DNA from: Planctomycetota bacterium
Lineage (GTDB): Bacteria; Planctomycetota; UBA8108; SXIK01
Length of the DNA: 38,683 nucleotides
Direction: 5' to 3'
Assembly (NCBI GenBank): GCA_016209535.1
Contig: JACQVW010000797.1
Coordinates: 1-38,683 of the forward strand
A program made the translations under genes and the position numbers. Of this stretch, positions 3,621 to 36,271 are shown one piece after another. Under the pieces are notes generated by a model. That model was given only the letters and a program-made list of their open reading frames with translations. It was not told the origin of the DNA and did not search any database. Within the stretch, counting starts at the first letter, position 1. Each line of letters opens with the position of its first letter.

Positions 3621-6600
3621 TCACAGGCCGTCGGGCAGCTTGCTCGCGTTGCGGATCTCCTGGCCTTTCCGCCGCAGGAGCGGGCTCAGCGGGTTCTCGC
3701 CGGGCCGCTCCGTCCCCTTCGCGCCTGGCGCCTCACGTGCCGGAGCCGGCTCGGGGGGGCCCCCCGAAGGGGGGCCCTCGGTGATGCCGGCAAGGCGCCC
3801 CGCCTCGTCGTAGCTGAAGCGGGTCAGGCAGACGTTCCCGCAGTTGACGGCTGCCGGACGGTGCTTCGCATCGTACTCGTACGTGAGGACCAGCCCATCG
3901 GGCCCGCGGACCTCGCGGACCAGGTCCTCCCTGCCCGGCCGCTCGTGGAAGCTGACGAGCACCCGCTCGCCGCCGAACCACCGCAGGCTCCTCGGCTTCA
4001 GATCCTCGACCTCCAGCGCGGCCTTCCCGCCGGCCTTCGTGGTCTCGAGGGACTTCGCTTCGCCGCTCTGGGCGTCGTAGGCGAGCACATGGGTCGCGCC
4101 CGCGCCCCTGACCTCGACGATCCTCCCTTCCTTGTCCCAGCCGACACCTACCTCCCCCCCCTGATCGTCCCGCACGGCCGAGACCCTTCCCTCCGAGTCG
4201 TACGTGAAGGCGAGCGCCGAGCCCGATGCGTCCCTGAGCGCCCGGAGGCGCCCCGCCTCATCCATCTCCGCCTTCAGCCACTCCCTGCCCGGCTCGCCTG
4301 CCGCGTCGGGGCCGACGTGGGCCTCCTCGAGCCTGCCGTCCGCGCCGCGCTTCAAATGCAGGGTGCTTTCCCCGTCCGAGGCCGACTCGAGCAGGCCCGC
4401 CGGGCTGAAAGACTGCGAAAGGACCTGCCGCTCCCCGCTCCACACCCCGAGGACGCGGCCGTCGGCCCCGAAGCGCGTCCGGAAGACGGGGGCGAAGGGC
4501 AGCTTCAACACCTCCCACTCACCGTTCGCGTCCCGCGCCAGCCGCAATCGTTCCGTTTCCCCGGCCGCCGTGCCGGTCACCTGGACGGAGCCGTCCGCGG
4601 CGTACTCCCAGGAGACCCTGGCCCCGCCAGCGACCCTGCCCGCGACAGGCCGCAGGTCTGCGTCGTACTCGATCTCGAGGCGGCGTTGCTCCCCGTCGGG
4701 GCCCTTCCCTGCGGCGCTGACGGCAAAGCCGCCGGGCCTCGGTTTCACGTCATAGGCGATCTCGACGCCGTCCGGCCCCGTCTCGTTGCCCAGGGTGCCG
4801 CCGTCGCCGTACTCGAACCGGCGCGAGAGCTTGCCGTCGTGGTAGACGCCGGTGACGAGGCCGCCCGTGTATTGGTACGTCGTGGTCCGCCCCGCGCTGC
4901 TCGCCGAGATCAACGAGCCGCCCTCATAACGGTACTCCACCTTCTCGCCGTTCGTGCCCTCGGCAGAAAGAAGGAGGCCGCTCGCCTCATCATAGGCAAG
5001 CGTGATCGCGGCCTGCCCCCCCGCGCCGCCTCTGGCTTCGATGCGCCGCAGGCGGTGTCCCGCGTCCCAGTGGTAGGTCACCTGCCTCCCCTCGTCGAAG
5101 GCTGCGATCAGGTAGCCGTCCGCGTCGAAGTGCCACTGGCTGCCGCTTCGCAGAAGGAGCACTTTTCGCCCCCCGGGCTCCGTCGCAATGCCGAGGTAAG
5201 GTCCCGGCGCCGACGGCACGAGGAGGGTCCTGCCGGCCTCCGGCACCAGGCGCTGCTCGCGAAACTCGGCAGCGGCGCCTCCGAGGGGCCTCGAGAGCCG
5301 CCAGCCGACCACGAAGGAATAGCCTTGGTCCGTCTTCTTGAACTCATGGCGCTCGGCATGGAGGCGAGGGAGGTCCAGGGTCCAGACATCGCCGAGGCTG
5401 CCGCCCGGCCGGAAGAAGGAATGGAACCTCCTCCTCAGGACCAGGCCGCGACCGCGCCCAAGCGGCACGGTGAGGTCGGCCTCCGCGAGCCGGCAGGCGC
5501 CGGGCGCCCGGACGTGGCGCGTCGGAAGCGAGAGCGCCTGGTAGCTCTTGCCGTCGTGCTCGAAGGCGGTCAACGAACCGGGGGGGGCGGCGTCGACGGC
5601 GCGCCACAGGTCGCCGGCCAGCTCTGGCATCGCCGGTGTCGGCGCAGCGCTCTTGACCGTCTCCGGATCAGGTCCGAGCGTGACCCCGCCGTACACCCGC
5701 ACCGTTTCCTTCAGGTTCCCACGGGTCCTGTGGTAGGGGACCTCGAGCGCCGGCGTGGTCCGTGGGACGGGGTGGCGCGGCGCCTTGTGGTTCCTCATCC
5801 AGGCAGGCATCGGCACCCCCTGGTCGCGGAGGTGCTCGGCGGCCGCCGAGACCACGGCGATCCGCTCCAGCAGGGCGAGGGCCGAGACTGTCGCGGGCCT
5901 CGCTCCCACGGCGTCCGAGGCGCGGGCCGTCTCGCGTCCAATCGCCTCGTAGTTCCGCGTGAACCACTCCGTGAATGCCTGAGCGAACCTGGAGGAAGCC
6001 GCTCCGGGCGCCGGGACCAGCTTCCCTCCCGACATCACCCGCCTCTCGGTGTTGACCTTCAGCGTCACGCCAAGGCGCGTCAGCTTGCCATCAGGGATGC
6101 TCTGCTTCACGGTTTCCCCGGGCACGATCCAGAACGCCTCCCATGGCGTGACCTCGGCGCCCCCACCAAGGCCGCCGAAGCGGAGGTCGGAGAGTTCGTC
6201 GTAATGCTCGATCGCGGAAGTCACTTTCGCCTTGGTCACGTTGTCGAACCCGAGGCCGTAGCCTTTCATCAGCCGGTCGCTCTCGAAGAGGACCCAGAGG
6301 ACGAAGGTGTCCTCGAGCCCAGGCGGGTATCTCGTGAGCATCTCCGGCCCCTTGGGACGACTGGGATCGGGGTCGATCGAGACCCAGGGAGCCTCGAGGT
6401 CTTCGTAGATCAGCCGGAAGATGGCGACGACGTCGTCGAGGCGGAGGGGCCCCAGCTCGACGAGGGCCTTCCCCTCCCCGAGGAGGACGATGCGGCCCTT
6501 CCCCTCGTCGTGGGCGATGCCGATGATCCTCCCGCAGCCCCGCAGGAGGTCCCCGGCGCCCCCGAGGTAGACCCCTCCGACATCGACCGGCGCGAGGACC

Positions 6601-9600
6601 GAGCCCCCGGCCGCCGCCCCCGGGCCGCCGGGGCGCCGGGCAGCGAGCGAGGCCAGGAAGTAGGCATCGGGGGCGATGGCGGCGCCGCCCGGCCCTTTCT
6701 TCTTGTTCCCTCCGTCGTCGATGACTGCGGGAGGTGGCGGCCTCCATGGCGGGAAGAAGAAAGGGTAGACGTCGTCATCCGGTGGTACATCGTCTTGCCT
6801 CAGTCGGCGCGGCCTCGGTTTGCGCGGTGGGTCTTCGACCAGAGGCAGCCCGAGCGTCGAGTCCTCTTCGGCCTGCTTGGCGCGGGCCCTCGGCCCGGAC
6901 GGCGCGAGGGCGCTTTCGATGACCTCCCAGCGCCCTTTCATCGTCGCAGGGCTCGTCCCCCTTCCGTCAACCTCCCGGACTTCGACCTCGGCGCCATCTC
7001 GCATCATCGCGATGTGCTGGCTTCCTGCCATGTCCAGCTTGCCCGGGCGTATGTCGACGCGGAAGACGCGAAGGTCAGGCAGGCCTTCCCGCTTCGCCTT
7101 CTTGACCGCACTGTGGTTCGCCACCATGTTGCCCGCCGGCGCGTCACCGAGGGTGTTGATGACGGCGATGTTGCCGCCGAGCACCGCGTAGGCGGCGATC
7201 AGGTCGCGGATGGGCGCCCGGCCGTCGATGAGCACGGCGCGGGTGATGGGGTTGTGCTCGAGGAGAGGAAGCACCTGGGTCAGGACCTTGGCCCCGTTGC
7301 TGCCAACGATCGCTGGCATGTCCACGGCCGTGCCTTGGCCTTCAAAGTGGCTCTTCACGCGGTCGAGGGCCTCGTAGGCGATGAGGCCGAACTCGTTGAC
7401 CTTCTCCTGCCGCCTGTCACCGACGAACGTGAAGATGCCGCCGGTGAAGTATCCGCCGATCAACTTGATGTTCTGGGCTAGGCGCACCTCGTAGTTCTCG
7501 AGGCCGCTCTCCTCGATGCGCGCGATGATCCCGGCGGCTATCAAGCGCGTCAGGGCCTCCTTGCCCGCCTCGGTCTTCGGGAAGTGCTCGTCATCGGGCA
7601 TCGGGATCAGGATCTCGCCGACGCGCGTCACGTGGGGCACCACCGCCGGGGCCGCCTCGCTGAAATCGTCGAAGAGCTCGAATCCGGGCTCCCAGTTGTT
7701 GACGCCGGGGTCGGTGACGTAGATCGTCACCTTTTCCGGCGAGCCCGCCTTGCGCTCGCGCGCCGGCTCGACCGGCTTGACCTCGGTGACTCCCTGGCGC
7801 GTCTCGACGCGGTAGCGCTCTCGGCTCGTCCGCGTCTCCGTGTAGGTCGTGCTGCCCGGGTCGTAGTAGCTGCCGAGGGGGAAGCGGAGCGCAAGGAACC
7901 GCTCATGGGCGCTGGTCGCGGCGGTGGACGACTGAACGGAGCGCTCGTAGACGCCGATCGGCGTGGTGAGCTTCTCGTTCTGCTCGTGGACGATCCGCCC
8001 GGGCTGCCACCAGCGGTCCGCGGGGGTGGAGAGGCGCCCCTCGTACTGGAGCCTCGAGTCGCCGATGTCGATCGAGCCGCGCCCCTCCCAGCCCCGGCGG
8101 GTGCGCTCCTCGAGGTAGACGGGCGGATTGGCGGCCATGAGTGCGGTGCCGATGGGGTCGATGACCTTGAAGTAGAGCTCCGTGTACTTCTGCACGGCGG
8201 ATAGCCCCATGGTGAAGGCGCCGGCGACGCGTCCGTAGAGGCGCACTCCCCGCATCATGCGGTCCTCGCCGTGGGGCGAGAGCGGAGGAGCGCCCCTGGC
8301 AGTCCGGAACTGGTTCACGAGTTGGACCTGCGTGCGGGTGTAGGCGCCGTACAGCCTGCCGAGCAGGTCGATCGGATCGAAAGGCTTGGGCCGGGCGGCC
8401 CCAGGCGGCACTTGCTGCTCCTCGGCCCACGTCAGCAAGGCATCCGCGAGGATCTCCCGCAGCGTGGAGAGCTGGGCGACGAGGCGCGTCGCCAAGTCAA
8501 CGCCGGCCTGGAGCCGCCACCGCCGCATCCAATCGAAGGGGGAAGCGGCGCCGGGGTTCACGGGGGAAGAGTCGAGGCCGGTCGCGTCGACGAAGTTGAC
8601 GGGGTCGTTCCCGCAGTAGACGCGGCCGGGCAGTTCCTTGGGGTCGGCGAGGGGGAGCGAGACGCGGGGGTCGGCCTGCAGGAACATCCCGAGCGACGGC
8701 ACATAGGTGCGCGCCCGCGTGACGTAGAGTGTCCCCACGGGTTCGAGGAACAGCCCCGCGAAGGCGGGCTGGAGCCCCTCCATCGCCCGGGCGGGGCGCG
8801 GCACCCCGAAGGGATCGTAGTCGAGGCGATCGACCAGCTTGCCGTCTCGATCGACGATGCAGCGCACGGATCCGAGGTGGTCGGCGAGGAAGTAATGCAC
8901 GCGCTCGCCGCTGACAGCGGCCAGGGGAGCTTCACCTTCCCATACATAGACCGTCGTCGCGCCGTCCGCTCTCGTCTCGAGCAGCGGGCGCCACGCCGCG
9001 GCGAGCGGGTCCGGCAGGTAGGTGCTCTTGCCCTCCGGGGCCTCGCGTCTCGAGAGGAGGCCGTCGCCGTCGTAGCCGTAGACGACGGTCTTGCCGCCTA
9101 CCGCCGCCTGCGCGAGGAGGTTCGAGGCGTTGTAGCGCAGCCGCAGCGGCTCCGCCCTCCCGGGGAGGCGGGTCAGGTTGCCAGCGGCGTCGTTCTCACA
9201 GGGCCGCCCCATGTACAGGACGAGCCGCCCCGCCCAGTCGAAGACGCTCGCGGCCGCCTGGCCGGAGGCTACGGCTTCGCTCCGGTTGCCGACCTCGTCG
9301 TAGCTGCAGGCGAAGGACTCCTTGCCCGGGCCTGCGGCCCTCAGCAGGCGCTGCGCTGGATCGTACTCGTAGCCCAGCGTCCGATCACCGTCGGGGAAGC
9401 GCTCTTTGACCTCGCGGACGAGTCCGTCGGGGCGGTACGCGTACTTGAGATCGGCGATCACCTCTCCCGTCGGGCCCGAGTGCGTGATAGAAGCCAGGTT
9501 GCCGTCCTCGAGGTAAGCCCAGACGGTCCGGACTCCGTTCGGCAGGGTGCGGTGTCTCTCCGCCTTCCTTGCGTCGCGGCCGTATTTCACCGTGCCGAAG

Positions 9601-10106
9601 GGAGCCTCGATGGCCGCGAGGCGGCCGAGGGAGTCGTAGGCGTAAACCACCTTGACGACCGCACCGACTTCCACCGAGCGGAGGCGGCCCTCGCCATCGT
9701 GGACGTAGGACAACGGCAGCGCTCCGTCGCGCCGCACCGCGGAGAGCCGGTGGTCGGCGTCGTACTCGTATTCGGTCTTGCCGATGGCGTCCGTCATGGA
9801 GACGCGCTGGCCCGCCCGGTTGAGCTCGAGGGCCACCTCGGTGCCGTCGCTGGCGCGGATCACCTGGCGCACGACCCTTCCGTCCTCGGCGGTCTCGTAG
9901 CGCATCCTGGTCTCGCGGCCCGCAGGGTCGACGAGGAGCACCGGCCGATCCGCGTCGTCATAGCCGAACTTCCACTCGAGCGGCCTGAGGCTGGCCTCCG
10001 CAGCCCCCGGAGGCGCGCCCAAGGATGGCCGTCCGAGGCCAAAGGCCGCCGCGAAGAAGACCAGCCACACGGTCGCGGCACCGAGAGTTCGGATCGAGTT
10101 CTTCAT
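3621..10106 (-). CDS. Secreted Rhs/YD-repeat protein with permuted architecture (YD + core, then central cargo region, then second YD block)
   Basis: Signal peptide MKNSIRTLGAATVWLVFFAAAFGLG; N-terminal YD repeats (YEYDADHRLSAVRRDG); Rhs-associated core (YFLADHLGSVRCIVDRDGKLVDRLDYDPFG...RARTYVPSLGMFLQADP...YCGNDPVNFVDATGL); then more than 1000 aa non-YD; then a second YD block (FHFDADGYLIAAFDEGRQVTYHWDAGHRLRRIEARG-type repeats) to the C-terminus. Confidence 0.9.
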   Translation of the reverse strand: MKNSIRTLGAATVWLVFFAAAFGLGRPSLGAPPGAAEASLRPLEWKFGYDDADRPVLLVDPAGRETRMRYETAEDGRVVRQVIRASDGTEVALELNRAGQRVSMTDAIGKTEYEYDADHRLSAVRRDGALPLSYVHDGEGRLRSVEVGAVVKVVYAYDSLGRLAAIEAPFGTVKYGRDARKAERHRTLPNGVRTVWAYLEDGNLASITHSGPTGEVIADLKYAYRPDGLVREVKERFPDGDRTLGYEYDPAQRLLRAAGPGKESFACSYDEVGNRSEAVASGQAAASVFDWAGRLVLYMGRPCENDAAGNLTRLPGRAEPLRLRYNASNLLAQAAVGGKTVVYGYDGDGLLSRREAPEGKSTYLPDPLAAAWRPLLETRADGATTVYVWEGEAPLAAVSGERVHYFLADHLGSVRCIVDRDGKLVDRLDYDPFGVPRPARAMEGLQPAFAGLFLEPVGTLYVTRARTYVPSLGMFLQADPRVSLPLADPKELPGRVYCGNDPVNFVDATGLDSSPVNPGAASPFDWMRRWRLQAGVDLATRLVAQLSTLREILADALLTWAEEQQVPPGAARPKPFDPIDLLGRLYGAYTRTQVQLVNQFRTARGAPPLSPHGEDRMMRGVRLYGRVAGAFTMGLSAVQKYTELYFKVIDPIGTALMAANPPVYLEERTRRGWEGRGSIDIGDSRLQYEGRLSTPADRWWQPGRIVHEQNEKLTTPIGVYERSVQSSTAATSAHERFLALRFPLGSYYDPGSTTYTETRTSRERYRVETRQGVTEVKPVEPARERKAGSPEKVTIYVTDPGVNNWEPGFELFDDFSEAAPAVVPHVTRVGEILIPMPDDEHFPKTEAGKEALTRLIAAGIIARIEESGLENYEVRLAQNIKLIGGYFTGGIFTFVGDRRQEKVNEFGLIAYEALDRVKSHFEGQGTAVDMPAIVGSNGAKVLTQVLPLLEHNPITRAVLIDGRAPIRDLIAAYAVLGGNIAVINTLGDAPAGNMVANHSAVKKAKREGLPDLRVFRVDIRPGKLDMAGSQHIAMMRDGAEVEVREVDGRGTSPATMKGRWEVIESALAPSGPRARAKQAEEDSTLGLPLVEDPPRKPRPRRLRQDDVPPDDDVYPFFFPPWRPPPPAVIDDGGNKKKGPGGAAIAPDAYFLASLAARRPGGPGAAAGGSVLAPVDVGGVYLGGAGDLLRGCGRIIGIAHDEGKGRIVLLGEGKALVELGPLRLDDVVAIFRLIYEDLEAPWVSIDPDPSRPKGPEMLTRYPPGLEDTFVLWVLFESDRLMKGYGLGFDNVTKAKVTSAIEHYDELSDLRFGGLGGGAEVTPWEAFWIVPGETVKQSIPDGKLTRLGVTLKVNTERRVMSGGKLVPAPGAASSRFAQAFTEWFTRNYEAIGRETARASDAVGARPATVSALALLERIAVVSAAAEHLRDQGVPMPAWMRNHKAPRHPVPRTTPALEVPYHRTRGNLKETVRVYGGVTLGPDPETVKSAAPTPAMPELAGDLWRAVDAAPPGSLTAFEHDGKSYQALSLPTRHVRAPGACRLAEADLTVPLGRGRGLVLRRRFHSFFRPGGSLGDVWTLDLPRLHAERHEFKKTDQGYSFVVGWRLSRPLGGAAAEFREQRLVPEAGRTLLVPSAPGPYLGIATEPGGRKVLLLRSGSQWHFDADGYLIAAFDEGRQVTYHWDAGHRLRRIEARGGAGGQAAITLAYDEASGLLLSAEGTNGEKVEYRYEGGSLISASSAGRTTTYQYTGGLVTGVYHDGKLSRRFEYGDGGTLGNETGPDGVEIAYDVKPRPGGFAVSAAGKGPDGEQRRLEIEYDADLRPVAGRVAGGARVSWEYAADGSVQVTGTAAGETERLRLARDANGEWEVLKLPFAPVFRTRFGADGRVLGVWSGERQVLSQSFSPAGLLESASDGESTLHLKRGADGRLEEAHVGPDAAGEPGREWLKAEMDEAGRLRALRDASGSALAFTYDSEGRVSAVRDDQGGEVGVGWDKEGRIVEVRGAGATHVLAYDAQSGEAKSLETTKAGGKAALEVEDLKPRSLRWFGGERVLVSFHERPGREDLVREVRGPDGLVLTYEYDAKHRPAAVNCGNVCLTRFSYDEAGRLAGITEGPPSGGPPEPAPAREAPGAKGTERPGENPLSPLLRRKGQEIRNASKLPDGL
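3753..3777. repeat. Homopolymeric GC hairpin (G7 C6 GAA G6 C3) near the 3' end of the Rhs gene
   Basis: Sequence ggggggg cccccc gaa gggggg ccc read directly at 3753-3777; CCCCCC/GGGGGG stem with GAA loop. Confidence 0.8.
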
Positions 10107-10225: not shown

Positions 10226-13200
10226 TCACTTCCCAGCAGTCTTCCCCGGTTCGGGCGGGGGTTCGCCGGGGACAGTATACTCCGCGGGCATGCTCAAGCG
10301 CGTGCCTCCCAAGGCGATGGGGAACCGCCGCTCGGCCCGCTCGCGGCTGACCTGGAAGACCTCGCCGCCGGCCAGGAACCAGAGCCCGTCATCGGAGTAG
10401 GCCGAATCCAGCACCAGGCCCCCCGAGGTGCGTGCGTACCAATCCCGGGCGATGAGGGAGGTGGAGTACGAGACGTGCACGGCCGCGCCGTGGATTGCGG
10501 GCGCCTCGATGGCCCATTGCGCGCCCCCGGCGCTGACCTCGTACCAGCGGCCGATGGAGTCGCGGCTCCGCTTCGAGACCTCCCACCGCCTCTTCCGCGG
10601 CTCGGCACAGAAGTAGACTCGCTCCCGGTCCCAGGCCATCACACCGTCCCCCAGGCCGCGCACCGCTTCGACGGCGGACATGGCCTCGAGGCCATTCTTC
10701 CCGTTCGACCGCACCCAAACGTCCGTGCCACCGTAGGAGGCCTTCTCCTTCACCGCATCGAGCGCATATCGCACGATGCCGACGGGCGTGGCGACGAGCA
10801 CATCCGCTCCCAAGAGCACTACCGAGCGAGCGTCATCGAAGACCAGGCGGCCCCTGCTGAAGATCGGCCCCGCGGACGGCTGCGCCAGGGCGCCCAGAGC
10901 GAGAGGCGGCCCGTTCGTCTCGCGGAGCGTGCAGGTCAACCCCGCGGGGTACCGCGACCAGGACCAGGTCCTTGGGCGGTGCACCCGTCGGTAGCCGGCC
11001 TCGAAGACCTCAGCCGCGGAGGCCACGCTCCTCCAGCCGTCCTTCGTACGTTCGAAAGTCGCTCCACGACGCAGCCGGCAGCAGATCCGCGAGCTTCCCC
11101 CTTCCGCGGCCGCCGCCGCGACCTCGAGGACCGCCTGGGCTTCGCCGCCAGGCGGGGCGAAAGCCGAGGCCTCGACTCTCTCGTGGGCGAAGTCCTCTGC
11201 CGCGCGCCGCGCCACGCCAGCCTCGGTCGCCAGGAGGATCGCGGCCGAGCCCGCTTCCGGCGCGAAGGCGAGGGCGTGCAGCACGTCCACGCGAGGCTTC
11301 CCGGCCGCGAAGAAGCGTGCGCCCTCGAGATCGGTCCGGCGCAAGCGCACTTCCACGCCACCGTCGAGCTGGCGCCAGCGCGTCATGCCGGTCTCGGAGA
11401 CCACGTCGTCGCGGTCGATGGCGTCCCAGGGAGGGGGGACAGGCAGCCAGCCGCCAGCGCCACCGTCGAAGCGGAAACATCCGCCGGGGCCGCGGGCGAA
11501 GAGCTGAAGATCCTTGAGGCGCAGGTGGAGCCTCTCGACCATCTCGAGTGAGCCGAGCGAGCCCGCCGCCTCGCCGGCCCGCGCCTGGAGCTGGATGAAG
11601 ACATCGTTCTCCGGATCGAACCTGACGATGCCTGCCCGCGAGCTCCAGAAGAGGCCGAACCGCGTCAGCGCGAGAGTGGAGGCCCCGACCCGGTCCTTCG
11701 CGACGTCCAGGTCGAGGAACGAGAAGGTCCCCCCGTGGAGGCGCGGCTTGACGTCCGCCGGCTTCACTTTCCCCTCGACGAAGCTCACAACCAGGCGCCC
11801 CTCTTCGGGGTGCCGCCACTCGAGCACATCGTCCTCGTAGGCCTTCGCCGCTGCCTCCGGCGCCGGCGCCTCGGCAAGCACGAGCGGCGTCCGGGGAGCC
11901 GCGGCCAGGTCGCCCGTGACTCGCCAGGTGAACTTCGTCCGCGCTCCCCGGAGCCGTACGTAGAGGGAGTCCCCTCCGGACGTTCCGATCCAGCCGATCC
12001 CCCGCTGGGGGGGGTCGAGCCCGCGGATGTCGGCGTCGGCGACGAAGGGCTCGGACCAGAGGGCGAGACCGAGAGGGACGAACTGCGGCGGCGGGCTGAG
12101 GAACGCGAGCCCCGCTTGAGTGCCGAGCACGATCCGGTCGCCGGCCGCTTCGACGGCGTGGACCACGTTGTGCGCGAATCGCGCGCCCCTCCCCCCCGGC
12201 ACCAGGAACGTGGGTTGACCCCGCCAGCGGACGTCGATGTCGGGCTTGCCGAGCCGCTGGCTCACCGCCACCCTCCAGCCGTCCGGGTCGGACGCCCGCA
12301 GGCTGAGAGCCGCCTCCAGCCTCGTCCTCTCGGCGGGCGAGAACATGTTTCCCTCGAGTACGCGGGGAGCCCCGCCCGACTCGAGCAGGACGTTCCCCTC
12401 CTCGTCGGCGGCCGCCTTGCCGACGGCTCCTGGCCCGATGCCGTCGAGGCGCTCGAGGCACCAGAGGCGCGAGGGGGTACCTTCGCCGGTCAGCACCTGG
12501 GCGCCGCAGGCGGTGCCCAGGAATAGGCGTCTCTCGGCGCCCTGCGTGGTGATGCACCGGAAACTGTCGAACCCGAATAGGCCGCTCGCGACGTCGAAGC
12601 TCACCGGCTTGTAGACGTCCGGCGGATCGCCCGGCAAGCGGAGCTCGAAATCGAGCGACGCCGACGGCCCGAGGCCGGCCGCGACCCGCCAGCGGGGACC
12701 GATCGACTTGAGACTGTTCGAGAGCGACCAGGCTTTCCGGCCCACCCCCTCCGCGAGCCGGCTCCAGCCTTCCTCGCCGGCGTAGATGCCCCCGGCCTGG
12801 GACCTGACGAAGAGCGCCCCGCCACTCGGACGGGCGTCCGGCACGCTAAAGAGCTCGAGTTTGGTGTCCGGCGGCACGCCCTCGAGGCTGACGGAAGCCA
12901 GGTCGCCGTCCGCTTCGCGTTCGATGAGCCCCTCGGCGGTCAAGAGGACCACGGCGCCGCCCGCTGCGAGGCGGGCGTCCTCCAGGGCATCGAAGAAGAG
13001 CCGCCCCCCTCGGGCGCTCAAGGCGCGGGGCGCCTCCCCCGAGGCTCGCACCGCTTCGAAGCTCACCTTGCCATCATCCCGCGTCGTGCGCCAGCGCTCC
13101 CCCTGTCGGACCTCCTTCTCGGGCGCGAGGCTCGCCAGCGGCGCTGCCGGGATCCAGCCCTTGCCGAGGTGCTCCAGCGTCGTCCCGTCAGAGCGTCTCG

Positions 13201-16200
13201 CCAGGGTGCGGCCGTCGAGGACTCCCAGCTCGGCCACGGTGCCAAGGTCTCCCCAGAGGCCCGTCAGGCCTTGCCCGCCGGCCGCCGTCCCGACGATCCC
13301 GCCGCGGGTGCCGAGAAAGCAGGCGCCCTCCGCGGCGACGACGTCGAGCGCCGTCTCGAAGCTCCAGCGGCCTTCCGGCGCGAGCAGCTCAACGGCGTCG
13401 AAGACCGAAGGCTCCTGGGGGCGGGAGTGCAGGAAGCCTCCGTCGCGCAGGACGCGCCAGACCTTGCCAACGCAGCGGTACTTCAGCACGCTCTCCACGA
13501 AGCCGCGCGGGAGCCTCCCAGCCGGCCTCCACGCCCCCCCGACATAGCCCATCGCCACCCCCGCCGGCCCCAGCAGCGCGCCAGGCAGGTTGCCGCTTGC
13601 CTCGCAGAACGAGAGTCCGCGGCGATCCCCTCTACTCCCCTCAAGCGGGCGGCGGCTCGAGAAAGCCGCCTCGACTCCCTCCACTTCGAAGAGCCCCGCG
13701 TCCGTCAGCACCCAGGCCGAGCTTCCCGCCTGCCCCAGGTCGGAGCAGAGGTCCCAGAGGAACCTACCGGCTTGCGGGCTGAAGCTGGACTCAAGCGGGA
13801 CGCCGCCGCTTGTCCTCCAGGTGACGGGCTCATCGGCAGGCGGCCCGGCGCCGGAGTCGGGCCGTTCCCACCTCCACGTGGGCGACGCCAGGAGCGGGCC
13901 CCCGAGCGCCTCGCGGAGAGACCTTAGGTCCGCCTCGCCGGCGCGCTCCCAACTCGATGCGTCCCGCGCCCAGGCGTCCGAGACGGCCTCCCCGCCGGGA
14001 TCGAGCCCGCCGGAGGGGGCCGGGGCGAAAAGCAGTTTGCGGCCACCGGGGAGTTCCATCACGTCGTAGCTCCCGAAACCGCGGCGCAGCCCGGCGGGTG
14101 CCGCCCACTTGCCCTCCTCGATGGCGGTGGGCACGAAGGAGCCCGCCTTGCGCTGGCTCACCAGCCCGCCGGCCGTGTAGAGGAGGAGGTCGGCGCCCGC
14201 CGAGTCGACGGCGGCGACCCTCTCGAACGTGAAGCCGTCCTCCTCAAGGACCACGGTCGCCCACTCCCCGGAGTCGAGCCGGCGGCTGAAGCGCCTCTGC
14301 GACCCCCCCGCCGCGGCCTGAGGCAACTTCCAGCTCGTGAGGAACCGCGCCTCATAGTCCTTCAGCTTCGCGGCGAGGGCGGTCCTTGCCGCCGGGGCTT
14401 TCGCCGTCACCCAGCGGCCCGGAGGTTGACGCAGATAGGCCTTGCCGCCTCCGATGGCCCATACCGTGGAGGCGGCCGCATCGACAGTTTCGATACCGGC
14501 GGCGGGAACGCCATCGGGGCTGGTCTCGAGCTTGGGTCGCGGCGCGGCAGCGGGCTCGAAGACGAGGCAGCCACCCAGGGTCGCGGCGAAGAGCGACATC
14601 CCATCGCTCGCCAGGTCGAGGACGACCTCGTGAGCGAGGGCGGCCCCACCCGACGACGGCAGCAGCTCGCGGCGGCGGCTTGGGTCTCCGGCGAGAATCT
14701 CGATCCGACCCGAGGGAGTACGCCAGGCGCCACCGGTCGCGGGCTGGAGGAGGAAGGGCCCGAGGTCCTTCCTGAGCACGCCGGAGGCGCTTCGACGCGC
14801 CTTCTCGATGAGCGCCTCGGCGTCCGGGACGGTGACTTCTTCCAGCGCGGTCCCCGCGGCCTGGAAGACGCGGACGTGCCCGGCGGTCCGGGCGAGCAGC
14901 TTGCGGTCGAGCGCTTGGACCTCCTCGACGAGGTCCGCCGTGAACGCCGTCCGCTCGGCGTTGAAGCGGTGCTCGGCCCCGCCGGGGCTCTGGAACGCCC
15001 CGCCGTGCGTCTCGGGCAGCGTCCAGGCCTTCGTGCCCGTGGCCAAGGGGCCGCTCGCCAGCACGCGGCCCGACCACCTGCCGCGGTGGAGGCTCGCACC
15101 GTCCTCCTCGAGCCCCGAGGCGTCCGGCTTGACACGCAGGATGGCGAGACCGCCCGTATCGCACGCTGCGTAGAGCTCGGCGTCGAGGCGGAAGAGCTCG
15201 AGGACCCTTGTCTCGCCGGCCGGAGTGCCCGGCAGGGGGATCTTGGAAAATCCGTCCTTCAAGTCGAAGCCCCAGAGGCTACCGTCGACCGCCAGCACCA
15301 CGACCTTCTCGCCGTGGGCGATGAGGGCTTGAGGGGAGAGCCCCTCCGGCAGCGGCCTCCCGACGCTGACCGGCTTTGCCAGGCTGCCGAGGTCCTTGAG
15401 GCTGTGGAGGACGCTCTTCTGGATCGCCCATCCGACCTCGGAGCCCGCCGCCGTGACGACGGTGCAGGAGTCGTTGCCGTCTGGAGCCTTTTCCTCCAGC
15501 CCGAGCTGAACGCGCAGCAAGGCTTCCTGGGTCGACGATTCCGTCTTCTGGTCCTCAGGCTCAACAGCGGCGGTCCCCGCGACGGCCTTGATGCCGCCGT
15601 CGTCTCCGAGCTCGAAAGCCCTTGGCTCCTCCTCACCCTCGAGCTTGACGAGCAAGGTCCCGCCGGCGCCTGGCTGGACTTCCTCCGCGGCCAGACAAGG
15701 CCGGCCCCCGCGCACGCGCACGGGGAAGCGCGAGGCCGGCTTCCCTGTCGCCGCCTTGGCGCCACGGACCATGACGTAATCGCCCGCCGTGTCCAGCGAG
15801 ATCGACCAGGCAGCCTCAGAGGCGGCGCCGAAGGCGGCGGCGCCGTGCCGGTCGCCGCCGACCGCGGCGGGCGCAGGCTCTTTCCAGGCACCCGCGGCGT
15901 ACTCGCGCAGGCCGCTGGCGAGAGAAGGGGCAAACTCATCGAGGAGGAACAGGCGGTCGCCGGCCAGCCAGAGGCGCGTTCCGGAGGCTCCCCCTACCGG
16001 CGTCCACCCGGCGCCGTGGCGGTAGATATGGAGGGAGCCGTCCTGGAGCAAGGCCACGAGGTCCTCGCCGGCGGCGGCGAAGGCCGCCCGGTCTTCAGGT
16101 GCTGGTTGCGGGGGCAGCCTTCCCGGCTGGAACGAGGTCGGGACCCAGCGCTGCCCCTCGAGGATGGAGATGCCTCCCCCCTTCGCCGCGTAGAGTGACG

Positions 16201-19200
16201 CATCGAGGACGCAGATGCTCGTGACCTCCGGGTCGGGCGGCGATGCGGTCCTGCCGGAGAGGAGGTCGAAGACAGCGAGCCCGCGTCCGTCCTCGCAAGC
16301 GACAAGGAGCTCCGGGCCGCGCTGCAGGACACGGAGGAACCTCTCGGCCGGGAGCTCCCGGAGCGAGCTCTCGAGCGAATGGCCGTCGACCGTCAAGACG
16401 AGAGGCCTGCCCGCGCTCCGCGAGAGCACCAGGAGCAGGTCCTCCCCCGCCAGCTCCGCGGCCTCGACCACGTCGTCTGGAGTCAAGTGTATGGCCGACC
16501 GCTCCCCGCCCCACCACGGCGCGAGCTCACCGCCGACGAGCCGCAGGATAGCGCCGTCGCTGGCCAAAGCGTAGAGGGACCCGCCGGCCCAGGCGATGGC
16601 CTCCACCGGGCGCGTCCCCAGCAGCCGGGCCTCGACGGCGTCGCCGCCTCGCTCGAGGCGGGCGAGCAGACGCTGGCTGCCGCGCTCGACCAGCGCGTAG
16701 AGCCCCTGCGGGGCTGAGGGACGGGCGAGGTCGAGCGCCTTCTCCCGGCACTCGAGCCACCTCTGGTTCGTCCAGTCGTAGACCCGGAGCCGCCCCGAGG
16801 TGTCGACCAGGGCGAGGAGGCCGTCGTGCTCGGCGGCGGCAGAAAAGTCTCCCAGCACGCCCGGAGCGCCAGCAGGGCTCCGCGCCGGCCGGACGCGCTG
16901 CAGGGCTCCTCCGGCGCCGCGCCAGCAGATCTCGCCGTCCTCGAGCCAGAGGAGGAGCCCATCCTTGAACGATGAGAGCCGAGCGATCCGCCCCCGCGTG
17001 GAGGAGTCAGGGATCCAGCTCCGGTTGCCGCGGAGGCTGAGGCTCTGCTCCTCGCGGCAGTAGCCGAGAACCTCTCCGCCTATGACGTGGAGCGACGCCA
17101 GCCGCGGCGCCTCCTCGAGGGACCAGGACCGGCGCGCCGGGTCATACGAGCCGAGCCTGCCCTCGGCGTCCAGCCGAAGCAGCTCCCCGGACCCGGGGTC
17201 CTCCGCCACCGCCAGCGTACGAGCTCCCGGGGGCATGGCGGCGCCGATGACCTCCACGGGACGGTTCGACCCGGGTAGCAGCGCGTTGACGCGCAGGCCG
17301 TTCTCGCCCGCGACCTCGAACGCGCACAGAGAGCTCGTGCGCGAGGCGGCGACCCGGCGCACCGAAGCCGTCGTGCTCAGGGTGCCGGGGGGGACGAGGA
17401 CCGCGCTCGTCAGGGTTGAGCCTGCGCTCCGGGAGATGACCCAGGCATTCGTTCGACCCTGCGCCAGCAGCCGGCTCTCGCTCGGGTCGTGGACGAGGCG
17501 CGTGACTTCCTCATCCACCTCGAAGCTCTGCCAAGCGGCCACCCCGCTCGATGGCCCATAGAGGTGGAGCGTGCTTCCCAGGCCGACGACGAGGTCACCA
17601 TCGAGGAGCGCGGCGTGGCCGGAGCTCGAGAGACGCCCGGCATCGCCTCCTACCGTGCTCGCGGCCAGGACCAGGTCCGCCGCGGCCGGCTCGGCGGGGC
17701 CCACCGAGTGGACGCGGCCGTCCCGCCCGAGGAGGAAGAGCCGGAGCCCGCCCTGGACCACCTTCTGGACACCCACCGGAGCAGCCCCCGCCTTCACCGG
17801 GTCGAAGGCGGAGCCGGTCCAGGCGTAGAGGACGGCGTCGTCCGTGCCCGTTAGCGCCCACACGGCGTCCGCGGCCGTGAAGAGGTCGGTCACCGGACCA
17901 CGGGGCACCTCGGCCATGCTCCAGCCGTGCTTCCCCCAGTCGTAGAAGCCGACCTTGCTCCCCTCGGCCGCTACGAGCGTCCCGGCGCGATCCACCGCGG
18001 CCGAAACCCGCGTCAGGTCGCCCTCGAAGGGCCAGCCGACAAGGGTCTGCGCGTCGCCCGGCGCCGCGTCGCCGCGCCGGACGAGCAAGTCCGCCCCGGG
18101 CTTGTCCCGCTTGAGGACGATCGCGCTCGAGCCCGCGGCGGCGAGCCGCTCGACCTCGGAGTCCAGGGAGGTCCAGAACTTCCCCCCCCGGGGCATGTAG
18201 GCGTGGAGCCGCCGCGCCTGGTCGGTGAACCAAAGACCGCCCTCCGTCCGCGCCGCGGCCCGGACCGGCGGCTCGACGCCGCCAGGGAAGTCGACCCGGC
18301 GCCACGCCCTCGTCTCAAGGCGGTACTCGTGGACCGCAGCGTCGTCGCCGAGGAGGAGCAGCAAGCCTTCCACCTCAGCACCGAAGGTCCAGCCGAGCTT
18401 CTTCGTCTCGAGCGGAGTGGGAGCCAGCCGCTTCGTGCTGATCCCGGTCGAGCCGTCGAAGGTCCTGACCTCCGGTGGCGCCCCCGGCGCCGCGATGAGG
18501 GCCTCGAGGATCTCGGCGCGGGCGACGACCCCCGAGATATCGGCGGCCACCGTGCGCCACTCCCGCGCCCCGGAGCCCAGCTCGATGGCGCTGAGCTTCC
18601 CGTTGGCGTCGAGCGCCCAGAGGAGCTCGTTCGTCAGCTCGAGCCGGACCACATCGGGCAGCCCGGGTAGGTGCTTCCAGGAGAAGTCAGAAGCGTCGTA
18701 AATGGCCGTCTGCCCGGCGCCGCTTGCGGCGAAGAGGGGGCCGCGCGCGGTGGCGGCATTCACCTCCGATGGAGGGAACGGGGCCTCCTCCGGCGGGATC
18801 AAGGCGGTCCTCGCCCGGCTCGAGAGTTCGATGGCATCGAGCGCGTTGTCCCCGGTGACCTGGAGCAGGCGCCCGTTGATGAGCGCCAGGTCGAGCGACG
18901 TGTCGTCCCTGAGCTTGCCGGCGGGCTCCGGATTGGCAGTACAGAGCTCGAGGCGCACCTCGTTGGCTGTGCGGTCCCAGATACCGATGCCCTTCCGGGA
19001 GGTGCCGAAGTAGACGGTCCTGCCCGGCCCGTGCGCGGCGCAGCGCATCTCGTCGACGGACTCGAGCCCTGGGAACCGGCCCGGACCGACGAAGCTTGCC
19101 CAGCGCCAAGGAACTCCCGCTGCCTCGACGGTCGAAGACTCGAGCCGGGAGGGCGCGCCGGGCGCGCTGCTCGTCGTCTTGATGATGGCCCGCCTTCCCG

Positions 19201-22200
19201 AGAACAACGCCTCGAGGACGGGCGCGCCCTCGGGCCCCACGAAGCCGCCCTCGATGTCGAGGAGCTGCCCCCCGGGACCTCTCGTGTCGCGGTAGTGCCA
19301 GCAGCCGTCCTGGGTCCCGAGGAGGACGGCGTCGCCCGCCGCAGGGTCCACCGCCATGCAATTCACCGTCACCCCGGCCAGGCGCGCCGGCAGGCCGAGG
19401 CCGGTCGTGTCGTGGGGCTTCTCGTGGTACCGCCCGAGGAAGCCACGGCCGGCGACGGTGGCGAAGAACCAGGTGGACTGCCCTCGCGTGCTCCCCTTGG
19501 CGCGGAGGACGTCCTTGTCCTCGAGGCCAGCGAGCTTTCGCACGCTCACGAGGAGCTCGTGGGCGTCGGCGGTGGCCGGAGCGCCCGCGTCATCGAGGGC
19601 GATCCGGCCAAGCCCGCCAGCGTTCGAGAGGTACCAGAGCCGCTTGCCTTGCAGGGAGAGGCTCTGAACGGAGTCCTCGGCGAGGCTGAGAGAGGCATCG
19701 AAGAGCCACTGGCGCTTGAACGAGGCGCCGTCGAGCGTGCCCGCGCACAGGCCTTTGTCCGTCGCCGCCCAGAGGATACACCCGGCCCCGCGGCCCGGCG
19801 CCGCGACGATGTCGTGGACCGTGTCGGAGGGGAGTCCGTGGGCGACGGTGATCGGCTGGCGCCAGGAATGCTCGGTCACGTGGTAGACCCCGATGCCGTG
19901 GCCTCGGGTGCCTACGAGGAGGAACTCCCCGCTGGGCGTCTCCGCGACGCAGATCGCCGATTCGTCCGTAAGCTTGGGGAATGACGAGAGGTCGAGGACG
20001 GGAGCCTTCCAGAACACGGGGGGGTAGTCCGCCGTCGCGATCTGCAACCCGCCGCCTCTCGTCGACGGATCAGCGGGGACGACCGCCGCGAGCCCCACCC
20101 CGGGTGGGCCGAATGCGATGTCGAGGACGTTGTCCGAGGCGAGCGGCGAGGTCGATGCAGTCACGTCGCCGCGGAAGACCTGTCGGCGCGGGTCGAAGAC
20201 CTTGATGCCGCCGCCGTCGGTCGCCACCCAGACGTGGCGGTCGCCTTGGCCCGCCTCGACCGCGGTCGGCGGCTGGTCGTTGTACTGCGTCGAGAGCCGC
20301 GGATCCTCGATCCGGGCCACGGGGTTGCCGACGAACCAAGCCAGGAGGAAAGCCAGCAAGGTCCCGGCGAGGCTGAAGGTCCCGATGCCGATCCGCACCG
20401 GCAAGCGGGGGCTCTCGCCCGACTCGGTGGGGAGAGTCCTCTCGGGCTCACGGGGAGTCCACATCGACTCGGCGACGTTCTTCTTCAGTTGGGCGAGCAC
20501 CGATTCGGGAACGGCGCCGTTCCGCGACAGGGCGCGAAGGGCAAGGAGCGTGAAGCAGACCGCCTGGAAGGGCATGCCCTGCGCCAGGTAGTAGCCCTGC
20601 GCCTCGCGGATCTGCGGCTCATGGGCCAGGCCTTCACCGCGAACGCTCCGGAACGACGCCGCGGCCTTGACGTGGAGGGCGGCGCGGACCATGGCCGGGC
20701 TGTTCTCGCTCTGGTGGTCCGCGGTCCACAAGGTTGGGAACACCGCCAGCGGCGCGCCGGCAAGGCCAAAGTTGCCTCTCGCGAGGCGCAGCAGCATGTA
20801 CGCCGCGCAGGCCAGACCGAGCTCGGCGCGGTCCTCGGCGCTCGCAGGGGCCAAGCCGCTCCTTGCCGCCTCCAGCGGCTCCCGCATCGCCGACGCGACC
20901 TCCCTCAGGTATCCAAGCAGGATCTTCAACTGGCGGTCGGCGTCGACCGCCTCCCGCGTGCGCAGCTCCTCGACAAAGAGGCAGAGCGCGAGGTCGGCGG
21001 CATGGGCGTGCACCGATCCCGGCGACCTGAGCTGAGGCTGCTGGCCGCGGCGGCCCGCCGGTGGACTCAAAGTCCGGAGCTGAGCTCTCGCGGCCAGGAG
21101 GTTGCACGTCAACTGCACGACGTCGATGGGCGCGTGCGCCTGGGACTCGCCTCGGCTCAGGAACTCAGCGCCCGACTCCGCTGCCAGGCGGTCGATGTTC
21201 TCGAGCCACAGGTCCAGGTACTCCGCGCTCGCCCGGCTCCATAGCCGAGCGGTCTCGCCTTCCTTGCCGTGGGTGGCTCCTGGGCGGCTGGCCCCGGCTT
21301 GGAGGCGCTGCGTGAGCACGCTGGCCACCACCCTGGCGTGCATCTCCAGCTCTCCCGCGACGGCTTCCGGCGCCAGAGCGCGGGGGGGAGCGAGCACGTA
21401 ATACCGGGCATCGATGAGCGCCTGCTTGAGGAGGACGTAGCGGGCAAACCGGCGCGCCGCCTCGGTCCGAGCCTGCTTGCTCTCCTCTTCGGTGCGCGCC
21501 ATCAGCTTCTCGAGGAGGTCACCGGCCTCAGCCCCCTGCGTGGCGCCGAGCGCGAGCAGCTTGTAGGCTTCGAGCTCGCGCTGCGCCGCTTCGTCGAGCA
21601 TGCCGCGGAAGAGTTCCGAGGGAAGCCCGGGCTCCGGCGAAGGCTTGCGGAGGAAACGAATGAAAAGGCAGAACCTCGTGTCCGCCAGCGAGCGGCAGGC
21701 CATCAGGAAAACCTTCGTCCAGAGGTGCCGGATGCCAGGGACGTCGGGGAAGAGCGCCGGAAGAGGAGAGCCTCTCGGCAGGGAGGCAGCGGCCGGCAAC
21801 GGCTTGGGTCCGGTCGCGGCTTCCCTCGGCCGCCGGCTCCAGCGCGTTGCCCCGCAGACCGCCCGGAAGTAGGCGGAGCATCGCGGCTGGCGCTCAATCA
21901 CCTCGGAGAGGACGGCCCGCACCCGCATCCGCCCCGCGAGCCAGTGCAAACCTGCCCACAGCCCCAAGAGGAGCAGGAGCGCCGAAACCAAGACGAGCAC
22001 CAGCAGGCCATCGAGCCAGCCGGGGAAGCCGAAGCCGAAGCGGTCATCGACCACGGGCAACCCGCGGCGCACGTCGAAGAGAACGAGCAGTAGGGCCGCC
22101 AGGCCGAGCGTCAACACCGTCGCCACGGTGGACGCAGGCCGCGCCCAGAGCTTCCAGCGCGCGCGCCAGAGGGCCAGCGAGAACAAGCTCGCAAACGAGA

Positions 22201-24007: not shown

Positions 24008-26428
24008 CTACCCCGGACCGCGCCACCGGAAGAGCTTCCTGCGCAACCTGGCCAGGAAGCCCTTGGGCGGCGGCGGACTCGGCGCCTCGGGGGGTGGCGG
24101 CGGTTTGATCTTCTTGATGGCTCTCATGGCCGCCTCGGCCAGTCTTTCGAGCCTGGGAAGCTCCGCGCGCAGCTTCCCTCGCTCCAGCGTCGCCTCCTGC
24201 TTGAGCTTCTCCCAGTCGCCCTGGAGACGGTCGACCTCGCCGCGCAGCTCCTTCAAGCTCTCTCTCTCCTGCTCCATCTTCTGCTTCCGCGCCGCCAGCT
24301 CGTCCAGGTGCTTCCGGCAGGCCTCGACCTCGCGTTCCAGGGCCTTGATGACGCCGTCGTACTCGCCTTTCCTCTTCTCGAGCGAGCTGTTGGCCATCTT
24401 TTGATTCTCAAGGGCGGCGGCGACGGCGGTCATCTCGTCCTCGATCCTCTTCTTGAGCGCCTCCACCTCCTTGATCTTCTCCGCGAGCTCGGCGTGGATG
24501 CTCTGCAGCTCTTTCCAGGTCTCGTTGAACTTGTGCTCTGCCGCCTTGATCTTGGAAGAGACGTCGGCATGGTCCTGCTTGACCTTGTCGAGCTTCCCTT
24601 GACGCTCAGCTTCCGCTGCCCGCCACCGCTCCAGGGCCTGGCTCTTGAGGAGGGAGACCTGCCTGTCGACCTCGAGGACGCGCATCACGAACGCCTTCCA
24701 CTGGTCAGGGAACGCCGCATAGCACTCGTCGGTGGCCTTGAGCGCCGTGTCGCCGAGACGCGCCCGCAGCGAGACCTCGCGGATCTCCTGGCGGACCCTT
24801 TCCCAGTTGGTCTCCGCTTCTTCGAGCAGACGCTTCGCTTGGGCGTGGAGCTTCGCGTCGAGCTCCTTGACCTTATCCTCAGCGGTCGCGCCGTGGAGGG
24901 CGGCCTCGCGACCAAGGGCTTCCGATGTGGAGTCGCGGACGCTCTCGGCGCCCTCGCCCTGAGCGTTGGTGTAGTGATAGACCTGCGGCAGCTTCTTGGC
25001 GGGGGAGAGGGACCAGAAGGAGAGCGGACCTCCTCTCCTGGCTCCTCGCTTCACTCCGCTCTCCGCGGCCGGGCCGACCAGGACGCGGCTCTCGCCGTCC
25101 CCCAGGAGATCCTCAGCCTCGAGCAACTCCCTGAGCTTGGCGGCGACGCCTTCCTCGTCGACCTCCAGGTTGAGGGAAATGTCGCTGCGCACGAAGAGAG
25201 GCAAGTTCCAAGCCTCCCAGCGTGAATCCTGCAGGTAGACCTGATCGCAGGGGACGGAGAGTGCAGCCCCTCGCGGGACGCTGAACTCGCCGATGATGTA
25301 GTGAATGATCGCTTTGCCTTCGACGACCCCTTGGGCGTAGGAGAATCCGGCCTGCTCAGCCAGCGGGCGCGACAGGAAGTGCTCCAGCTTGACGGGGAGT
25401 CTTTTCGTCTGTGGGCGCTGAAAGAATGCATAGATGGGAATGTACTCCTGCTGGGAGCGGGCCCGCAGCCGCTCGCGCCTCGAGTAGAGTTCATCGAGGG
25501 CACGCTCGTGCATGCCGACCTGCCTCTCGATCTCGCCCAGTGCGCCGACGGCACGCTCGGCCTCACCTTGGGCGAGCCTCACATCCAGAGCCTCCGGCTG
25601 GCCTCCCTGGCGGAGCTTCAGGTGCGCGACCTTGGTGGAGTGGCTCGGCAAGACGAGGCGAATGCCGTCCCCCGCGGTGAAGGGCTCCCCATCGATAGTG
25701 AACCACTTCGGGACATGCCAGGCCGAGCCGTGATCCACCCCAGGAGGCTGGGGGACCGGGTCGCCGTGCGCGCACAAGAGGATGCCGCTGTCCGGTTCCT
25801 CGTACAGCATGTAGAAGTCCTCGTGCCGGGGGTACTCGTAACCCCACTCCACGAACAAGAAGCAGCCCTCTTCACTCCAGGCCGGGACGAAGACCTGGAG
25901 CCGCTTCTCCGTGTGGCGCTTCCTGAATTGGTGGAACTTGAACGAGGCCGCCACGTGGTCGATCTGGACCAGGGACCAGCCGGGCTGCTCCGTGCCATTC
26001 GTCAGATAGAAGCCACTTTCGGTCCGTTCGGTCTTGGGGACGTCGCGCCATGCTCGGCGTACGATCCCTTGAGCTTCAGCGGGTGCGCAGTAACCGGCCT
26101 CGATCCGGCAGGCAAGGACAAAGGACTGCAGCCGCGGCGGCGGTGCCATCCAGGCGCGGAGAGGCACGTGCTCGAGGAGTTGATTGGCGCTAATCACGGT
26201 TGCCAAGGGAGCGCAGCGCTTGACCTCGCCGCCGTAAAGGAATCCACTACCATCCCACTGGGAGTCCTCGAAGGCGATGGAATAGCACGGCTCGCCTGGC
26301 TTGTCGAGGTGCACCCCGATGCGCGTGTAGACCTCTCGCCCTGCCTTGCCCAAGGGAGTCTGCCCCCGTTCGCAGGCAACGAGGAACTCAAGGCAGTCAT
26401 CCAGCGACTGGAACAGAATATGATTCAT
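24008..26428 (-). CDS. Coiled-coil protein with proline-rich linker and cationic C-terminal tail
   Basis: ORF 24008..26605; start MNHILFQSLDDCLEFLV at 26428 places the gene just after the upstream stop at 26445. Long heptad region (KLDKVKQDHADVSSKIKAAEHKFNETWKELQSIHAELAEKIKEVEALKKRIEDEM...) followed by PPPPPEAPSPPPPKGFLARLRRKLFRWRGPG. Confidence 0.8.
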   Translation of the reverse strand: MNHILFQSLDDCLEFLVACERGQTPLGKAGREVYTRIGVHLDKPGEPCYSIAFEDSQWDGSGFLYGGEVKRCAPLATVISANQLLEHVPLRAWMAPPPRLQSFVLACRIEAGYCAPAEAQGIVRRAWRDVPKTERTESGFYLTNGTEQPGWSLVQIDHVAASFKFHQFRKRHTEKRLQVFVPAWSEEGCFLFVEWGYEYPRHEDFYMLYEEPDSGILLCAHGDPVPQPPGVDHGSAWHVPKWFTIDGEPFTAGDGIRLVLPSHSTKVAHLKLRQGGQPEALDVRLAQGEAERAVGALGEIERQVGMHERALDELYSRRERLRARSQQEYIPIYAFFQRPQTKRLPVKLEHFLSRPLAEQAGFSYAQGVVEGKAIIHYIIGEFSVPRGAALSVPCDQVYLQDSRWEAWNLPLFVRSDISLNLEVDEEGVAAKLRELLEAEDLLGDGESRVLVGPAAESGVKRGARRGGPLSFWSLSPAKKLPQVYHYTNAQGEGAESVRDSTSEALGREAALHGATAEDKVKELDAKLHAQAKRLLEEAETNWERVRQEIREVSLRARLGDTALKATDECYAAFPDQWKAFVMRVLEVDRQVSLLKSQALERWRAAEAERQGKLDKVKQDHADVSSKIKAAEHKFNETWKELQSIHAELAEKIKEVEALKKRIEDEMTAVAAALENQKMANSSLEKRKGEYDGVIKALEREVEACRKHLDELAARKQKMEQERESLKELRGEVDRLQGDWEKLKQEATLERGKLRAELPRLERLAEAAMRAIKKIKPPPPPEAPSPPPPKGFLARLRRKLFRWRGPG

Positions 26429-26444
26429 GATCGTCTCTCTGTCC

Positions 26445-27968: not shown

Positions 27969-27971
27969 GGG

Positions 27972-35958: not shown

Positions 35959-35969
35959 CTGCCAAGACT

Positions 35970-35985
35970 CCCTGCCGGAGCAGGG
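35970..35985 (-). promoter_or_regulatory. Short 5'UTR hairpin upstream of the sigma-factor start
   Basis: Perfect inverted repeat CCCTGC-TCCG-GCAGGG (minus strand), 11 nt upstream of the ATG; the G-rich SD-like GGGAG overlaps the 3' arm. Confidence 0.4.
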
Positions 35986-36271
35986 GGTTCCTGCATACAG
36001 TTGAGCCTGAAACGGAAGAGCAGGAGTCAACAGTCTCAAGTCCGAGAAGACATCTAACCGGAGACTTGCGGTCAGGGCAAGGCCCAAACGTGTCCTTTCG
36101 CGGAGCCTGCGTAACCGCGTACGGCCCTCCTGGGCGAGCGGGGTAGAGAGGACCCCGGCCGCTCCGCTTCGCTGGCGGCTGTAGGCTCAACCCGACCGAC
36201 CCGATCCACATCGCGAGCTACCCCTTCCGGAACGGCCGCCCCCGTCGCCGCCGGGCCCCGACACCTGCGGT

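What the first reader, a model, noticed from the sequence alone, without database searches (positions are those of the whole stretch)
3621..10106. Rhs protein with permuted architecture: core near the N-terminus, second YD shell at the C-terminus, cargo in the middle
Canonical Rhs proteins run YD repeats, core, then a C-terminal toxin. Here a signal peptide is followed by a short YD block (about 8910-10000), the core (about 8565-8910), over 1000 aa of non-YD sequence (about 5550-8560), and then an N-terminal-Rhs-like segment (LTVPLGRGRGLVLRRRFHSFFRPGGSLGDVWTLDLPRLH, about 5360-5480) plus a long YD block (about 3780-5300). The C-terminal YD block could join the N-terminal one into one shell, as in a circular permutation, with the cargo as an internal insert.
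Basis: partly seen in the sequence, partly recalled or inferred. Interest (0 to 1): 0.8.

Follow-up and report, generated by a model that had tools for sequence, protein, structure and literature searches.

The report
Rhs shell protein with swapped halves
A lake-type planctomycete genome encodes a secreted Rhs ("toxin cocoon") protein whose shell halves are written in the reverse of the usual order around a large middle region; sequence and structure evidence suggest the halves complete each other like the two-part shell of Tc toxins, but most of the middle is too big to sit inside, and only one example is known.

Summary
The 2161-aa protein (3621-10106, minus) runs signal peptide, YD block, Rhs core (TIGR03696, over cut-off), about 1030 aa of non-YD sequence, a degenerate Rhs shell-start segment, and a second YD block without a core. 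Comparison Rhs loci in this and related genomes all have the usual order. The first block folds confidently and matches the TcC half-shell of Tc toxins (TMt 0.59). The two blocks together (about 1040 aa) make roughly one shell's length; neither alone does. The C-block model is poor, so closure into one shell is inferred. "Cargo in the middle" needs revision. It is two things: an unidentified region in the toxin position (512-1080), and a DUF1598-type domain (1187-1480) that directly precedes the same shell start in relatives. At about 112 kDa it is far larger than known Rhs cavities hold (<25-30 kDa). The C-terminal half exists alone as secreted [DUF1598-RhsN-YD] proteins; one sits beside a bpMoxR operon homologous to the one in this window. 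Misassembly is unlikely: no repeated DNA, uniform codon usage. The full permuted order was found once.

The parts
3621..10106 (-). whole gene, 2161 aa
10014..10106 (-). signal peptide, residues 1-31
   Evidence: sequence; hydrophobic stretch 7-25
8817..9980 (-). N-terminal YD block, residues 43-430 (TcC-like half-shell)
   Evidence: PF05593/TIGR01643; AlphaFold pLDDT about 85-95; Foldseek to TcC chains TMt 0.54-0.59
8574..8819 (-). Rhs core, residues 430-511, with conserved Asp pair D479/D507 and GL511 at the expected autocleavage site
   Evidence: TIGR03696 over cut-off; alignment
6867..8573 (-). toxin-position region, residues 512-1080: predicted helices about 525-670, then an orphan domain about 790-1050
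   Evidence: no Pfam/NCBIfam hit; nothing better than E=0.007 in 392 phylum genomes; low-confidence model
6549..6866 (-). Pro/Arg-rich linker, residues 1081-1186
   Evidence: sequence
5667..6548 (-). DUF1598-type domain, residues 1187-1480
   Evidence: homology to L041, L042, L038, L086; L038 passes the PF07643 cut-off, 25.3 vs 25
5352..5495 (-). RhsN: degenerate shell-start segment (DUF6531-like), residues 1538-1585
   Evidence: alignment A6; same DUF1598-RhsN junction in relatives
3780..5159 (-). C-terminal YD block, residues 1650-2109, no core
3624..3779 (-). Pro-rich C-terminal tail, residues 2110-2161
   Evidence: sequence
10226..22852 (-). 4208-aa membrane-anchored protein, propeller-like repeats by eye; candidate component of a MoxR ternary system
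   Evidence: several predicted TM segments; sequence; no Pfam hit
24008..26605 (-). companion protein with a syntenic homologue in G166:C361
   Evidence: E=4e-21
26445..27968 (-). companion protein with a syntenic homologue in G166:C361
   Evidence: E=8e-9
27972..29633 (-). bpMoxR AAA+ ATPase (GPPGTAKS P-loop)
   Evidence: PF20030 E=7e-53; 48% identical to the L087 MoxR
35425..36087 (-). sigma-70-like factor at the head of the cluster
   Evidence: PF04545/PF08281
241..2436 (-). vWA protein with a signal peptide, downstream
   Evidence: PF00092; sequence

Best explanation
This is a Sec-exported Rhs protein in which the two halves of one Rhs/YD shell are encoded in permuted order on one chain. 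The N-terminal block plus core (residues 43-511) corresponds to the TcC-like half with its plug and aspartyl autoprotease. The C-terminal RhsN plus YD block (1538-2109) corresponds to the shell-start (TcB-like) half. After export the halves associate into one shell; the middle region leaves the shell at the core and returns at the RhsN end, so most of it (toxin-position region, linker, DUF1598 domain) lies outside. If the conserved Asp pair is active, self-cleavage after L511 would turn the chain into a two-piece shell like TcB/TcC. It most likely arose by fusion of an [SP-YD-core-toxin] gene to a [DUF1598-RhsN-YD] gene, or by tandem duplication and loss of the ends. Context suggests that it is a surface or periplasmic effector or adhesion component of a MoxR-vWA-beta-propeller conflict-type locus. 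Shown: order, domains, half-shell fold of the N block (model), stand-alone existence of the C half, synteny. Inferred: association of the halves, cleavage, origin, function.
For: Order and domains. The N-block model, pLDDT about 85-95 over residues 41-440, matches TcC chains over their length (6l7i_G TMt 0.59, rmsd 4.6; 4igl_D 0.57; 5kis_B 0.56; 4igl_B 0.54) and not TcB chains (4igl_A 0.06). Shell start to core end is 1097-1447 aa in five canonical Planctomycetota Rhs contigs, and solved single-chain T6SS Rhs shells mostly have 964-1048 modelled residues; here the blocks are about 571 + 469 = 1040 aa, so each alone is a partial shell and together they make about one. The C half exists alone, without core, in L042, L086 and L038; DUF1598 directly precedes RhsN in relatives. 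Core Asp pair conserved. The bpMoxR locus is syntenic with G166, which also carries a DUF1598-RhsN-YD gene, split over two contigs that share a 126-bp end overlap.
Against: The C-block model is poor (pLDDT 61, pTM 0.43); its Foldseek hits are Rhs shells (E=2e-18) but with TMq only up to 0.31, and it does not single out the TcB half. Stand-alone [DUF1598-RhsN-YD] proteins carry only a few YD repeats and no partner core gene was seen beside them, so the module need not build a closed shell. No second protein with the full permuted order was found. Other bpMoxR loci do not carry it: 0 of 40.
Confidence: 0.5

Rival explanations
1. Two independent modules fused in one chain: an N-terminal TcC-like partial shell with its effector region, and a DUF1598-RhsN-YD module that works as an open YD stalk or adhesion surface. 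No joint shell forms.
For: The C module is free-standing in other genomes with short YD tails and no core. In G166 it ends in a different C-terminal domain. C-block model not closed.
Against: The C block here is much longer (about 460 aa of YD) than in the stand-alone relatives, and its length plus the N block equals about one shell. The N block matches a half-shell that in Tc toxins needs a partner.
Confidence: 0.3
2. Intermolecular completion: the C block of one molecule completes the N block of the next, giving head-to-tail dimers or chains.
For: The halves are separated by about 1030 aa of non-repeat sequence, long enough to reach another molecule; TcB and TcC show that one cocoon can come from two chains (PMC8765631).
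Against: No evidence of oligomers; the same linker allows closure within one molecule.
Confidence: 0.1
3. Assembly chimera or decaying gene: two Rhs genes joined artificially, or a degraded remnant.
For: Fragmented MAG (906 contigs, 80% complete); a single instance; RhsN degenerate.
Against: No repeated DNA that could cause a misjoin; uniform GC3; intact 2161-codon frame; the internal DUF1598-RhsN junction is conserved in other genomes.
Confidence: 0.06

Closest known systems
Tc toxin TcB-TcC shell (e.g. YenB-YenC2, TcdB2-TccC3)
   Same: One YD shell built from a shell-start half and a core-bearing half; the N block is structurally TcC-like; aspartyl core residues retained
   Different: Order reversed on one chain; no SpvB or TcB propeller part in the protein; C block not shown to be TcB-like; middle far too large to be enclosed
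T6SS Rhs effectors (RhsA, Rhs1/Tre23, RhsP, Tse15)
   Same: YD repeats, core with Asp pair, variable region after the core
   Different: Canonical order there, with PAAR/VgrG/EagR links; here a Sec signal peptide and permuted order
Teneurins and teneurin-like protein (9ifo)
   Same: YD shell with a domain outside the barrel; 9ifo is the top Foldseek hit of the N-block model by E-value
   Different: Canonical order, closed shell in one run
MoxR-vWA-beta-propeller ternary systems (Kaur et al. 2020, PMC7159879)
   Same: bpMoxR with the TAKS-type P-loop and a giant membrane-anchored gene in the same cluster
   Different: The paper's main text has no mention of Rhs or YD repeats and says these systems show no conventional effector; a vWA with C-terminal propeller was not identified here
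DUF1598 proteins of Planctomycetota
   Same: DUF1598-type domain in the middle of the protein
   Different: Most carry no Rhs part (TPR-fused or stand-alone); fusion to RhsN-YD seen only here and in four other genes

Membership tests
Rhs/YD-repeat proteins | RHS/YD repeats above curated cut-off | tested here: met
   PF05593 117 bits vs 22
Rhs/YD-repeat proteins | Rhs-associated core domain | tested here: met
   TIGR03696 38.2 vs 32.5 bits
Rhs/YD-repeat proteins | Canonical order shell start, YD, core, C-terminal variable region | tested here: not met
   Core at 430-511 precedes RhsN at 1538-1585; all comparison contigs canonical
Rhs/YD-repeat proteins | Aspartyl autoprotease motif (PxxxxDPxGL) | tested here: inconclusive
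   Both Asp and GL kept, motif reads VDATGL, spacing 28; activity untested
Tc toxin BC pair | TcC-like half-shell with core | tested here: met
   Model TMt 0.54-0.59 to four TcC chains
Tc toxin BC pair | TcB-like partner half with SpvB/propeller part | tested here: not met
   C block does not single out TcB; no such Pfam hits in the protein
Tc toxin BC pair | TcA pore component encoded with it | not tested
   Not searched for genome-wide; no such Pfam hit among the window proteins scanned
T6SS Rhs effector | PAAR/VgrG/prePAAR N-terminus | tested here: not met
   Signal peptide then YD; no such Pfam hit
MoxR-vWA-beta-propeller ternary system | bpMoxR gene | tested here: met
   PF20030 179 bits vs 27
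MoxR-vWA-beta-propeller ternary system | vWA component with C-terminal propeller | tested here: inconclusive
   Only a secreted vWA protein at 241-2436 found; giant gene without Pfam hit
DUF1598 | PF07643 hit above cut-off | tested here: inconclusive
   Window domain itself not hit; homologous L038 passes the cut-off; linked by profile search

The most novel reading that the evidence does not exclude
A circularly permuted Rhs shell split between the two ends of one chain, in which self-cleavage at the core opens the shell or lets molecules complete each other's shells into chains, serving as the missing effector of a MoxR-vWA-beta-propeller conflict system.
Probability: 0.1. Interest if true: 0.85.

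Novelty: new variant of a known kind. Interest (0 to 1): 0.55.

Why it matters
The Rhs, Tc and teneurin shells of known structure follow one order. A shell with its ends in the middle of the chain would show that the YD spiral tolerates permutation, would separate encapsulation from cargo position, and would give an opening mechanism that can be tested. The recurring DUF1598-RhsN-YD module, in two cases beside the same kind of bpMoxR operon, points to a possible effector or surface component for conflict systems described as lacking one.

Tried and rejected
Misassembly as the main explanation: no repeats, uniform codon usage, conserved internal junction. A hidden RhsN upstream or core downstream: none. 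An alpha/beta-hydrolase reading of residues 790-1050 (SNG motif) and kinship with L040: not significant (BLAST E=3.8), low-confidence model, no family hit; left as orphan. The module as a general companion of bpMoxR: 0 of 40 other loci. The full permuted order elsewhere: two genome-contig scans (the only relative returned was the G166 contig), plasmids, 59 relatives and 392 phylum genomes and class-level searches gave none. A first alignment that mixed DUF1598 and canonical Rhs starts misaligned RhsN and was replaced by A6. PADLOC: no hits. Papers: none found on DUF1598; the papers listed for Rhs with circular permutation do not report a permuted Rhs shell.

Full report
The window is a whole contig (C683) of a fragmented 9.1-Mb metagenome-assembled genome, 80% complete, 906 contigs. 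Its phylum is Planctomycetota: a contig of G166, a genome of the same phylum, carries that name in the public record.

Check of the observation. The 2161-aa ORF is intact. It reads: signal peptide 1-31; YD block 43-430; Rhs core 430-511 (TIGR03696 over cut-off); non-YD 512-1537; a degenerate shell-start segment 1538-1585 that aligns with the GxGW region of canonical Rhs starts; second YD block 1650-2109; Pro-rich tail. No shell start lies upstream and no core downstream. In the comparison contigs of this genome and its relatives where both shell start and core were mapped, the order is canonical in all: five by profile, one by motif, and two more with weaker core matches. GC3 is even, there is no repeated DNA that could cause a misjoin, and the DUF1598-RhsN junction recurs in other genomes, so a chimera is unlikely.

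What the pieces are. The N block plus core is predicted with good confidence (pLDDT about 85-95 over residues 41-440) and matches TcC chains of Tc toxins over their length (TMt 0.54-0.59), not TcB chains: a half-shell. The core keeps the Asp pair and GL of the autoprotease (D479, D507, L511), though the motif reads VDATGL instead of DPxGL. The C block is recognisably Rhs-like (Foldseek E=2e-18) but modelled poorly (pLDDT 61) and not as a closed shell (TMq up to 0.31). By length, about 571 aa (shell start to end of C block) plus 469 aa (start of N block to core end) gives 1040 aa, against 1097-1447 in five canonical planctomycete Rhs contigs and mostly 964-1048 modelled residues in solved T6SS Rhs shells. 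Neither block alone is a shell; together they are about one. This is arithmetic, not proof of assembly.

The middle is not one cargo. Residues 1187-1480 belong to a DUF1598-type family (L038 over the Pfam cut-off; profile search). In L041, L042, L086 and L038 this domain stands before the same kind of RhsN segment, followed by a short YD tail and no core, behind a signal peptide where the start of the gene is present. So residues 1187-2109 are a [DUF1598-RhsN-YD] module that exists on its own, and residues 1-1080 are an [SP-YD-core-toxin position] module. The window protein has them in series. Residues 512-1080, in the toxin position, have no significant relative. The whole middle is about 112 kDa; the cavity of Rhs1 suits a folded domain of <25 kDa (PMC8636562) and Tc cocoons hold about 30 kDa (PMC8765631). 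Most of it must be outside if a shell forms.

Context. The gene follows a 4208-aa membrane-anchored gene and a bpMoxR cluster headed by a sigma factor. In G166, contigs C751 and C361 share a 126-bp end overlap. Read side by side they give a sigma-factor-like gene, a DUF1598-RhsN-YD gene that continues into a further C-terminal domain (caspase/CHAT-like by eye), and three genes homologous to and in the same order as 24008-29633 of the window, with MoxR at 48% identity. Among 40 other planctomycete bpMoxR loci none has the module, so the link holds for this sub-branch only (two cases). The paper that defined beta-propeller MoxR systems calls them without conventional effectors and does not mention Rhs or YD repeats in its main text (PMC7159879).

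Mechanism. Best supported: after Sec export the two halves of one chain associate into a TcB/TcC-like shell, with the middle looped out, and core self-cleavage would convert it to two pieces. Rivals: two independent modules; completion between molecules; chimera. Deciding between the first three needs a full-length or two-chain structure, which the tools here could not give (length limit, and the blocks may not be joined).

Verdict. A real, so far unique permuted Rhs architecture: a new variant of a known kind.

Noticed in passing
L087:7366-8793 with L041:2-2074 (G166): A DUF1598-RhsN-YD protein split over two contigs that share a 126-bp end overlap; it continues after the YD repeats into a domain with GHNG and LPTCG motifs, caspase/CHAT-like by eye.
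   Followed up: partly
window 31781-34363: 860-aa protein: N-terminal EETHD region reminiscent of ChaN/TraB-type proteins and a C-terminal CHAT-like stretch, by eye; no Pfam hit above cut-off.
   Followed up: no
window 10226-22852: 4208-aa protein with several TM segments in the first 840 residues and then about 3300 aa of propeller-like repeats that no Pfam model recognises.
   Followed up: no
window 2253-3446: Protein with a lipobox-like LTGC near a possible internal start, between the Rhs gene and a secreted vWA gene; possibly an immunity or anchoring protein.
   Followed up: no
L053 (own genome C91): Second DUF1598(x2)-RhsN-YD gene of this genome, next to a TPR protein, a ClpA-like ATPase and a Ser/Thr kinase gene: a different NTPase context.
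   Followed up: partly
L036, L037, L039, L040, L088: DUF1598-type domains fused to TPR-like repeats in several planctomycetes; L040 has a further N-terminal domain with an SNG motif.
   Followed up: partly
L044 (G000:C754): SpvB-type Rhs protein whose YD/core region is interrupted by about 150 aa of non-YD sequence before the core.
   Followed up: no
G000:C161 (L047, L119): Rhs start and YD-core lie in different frames of one contig, suggesting a frameshifted Rhs gene.
   Followed up: no
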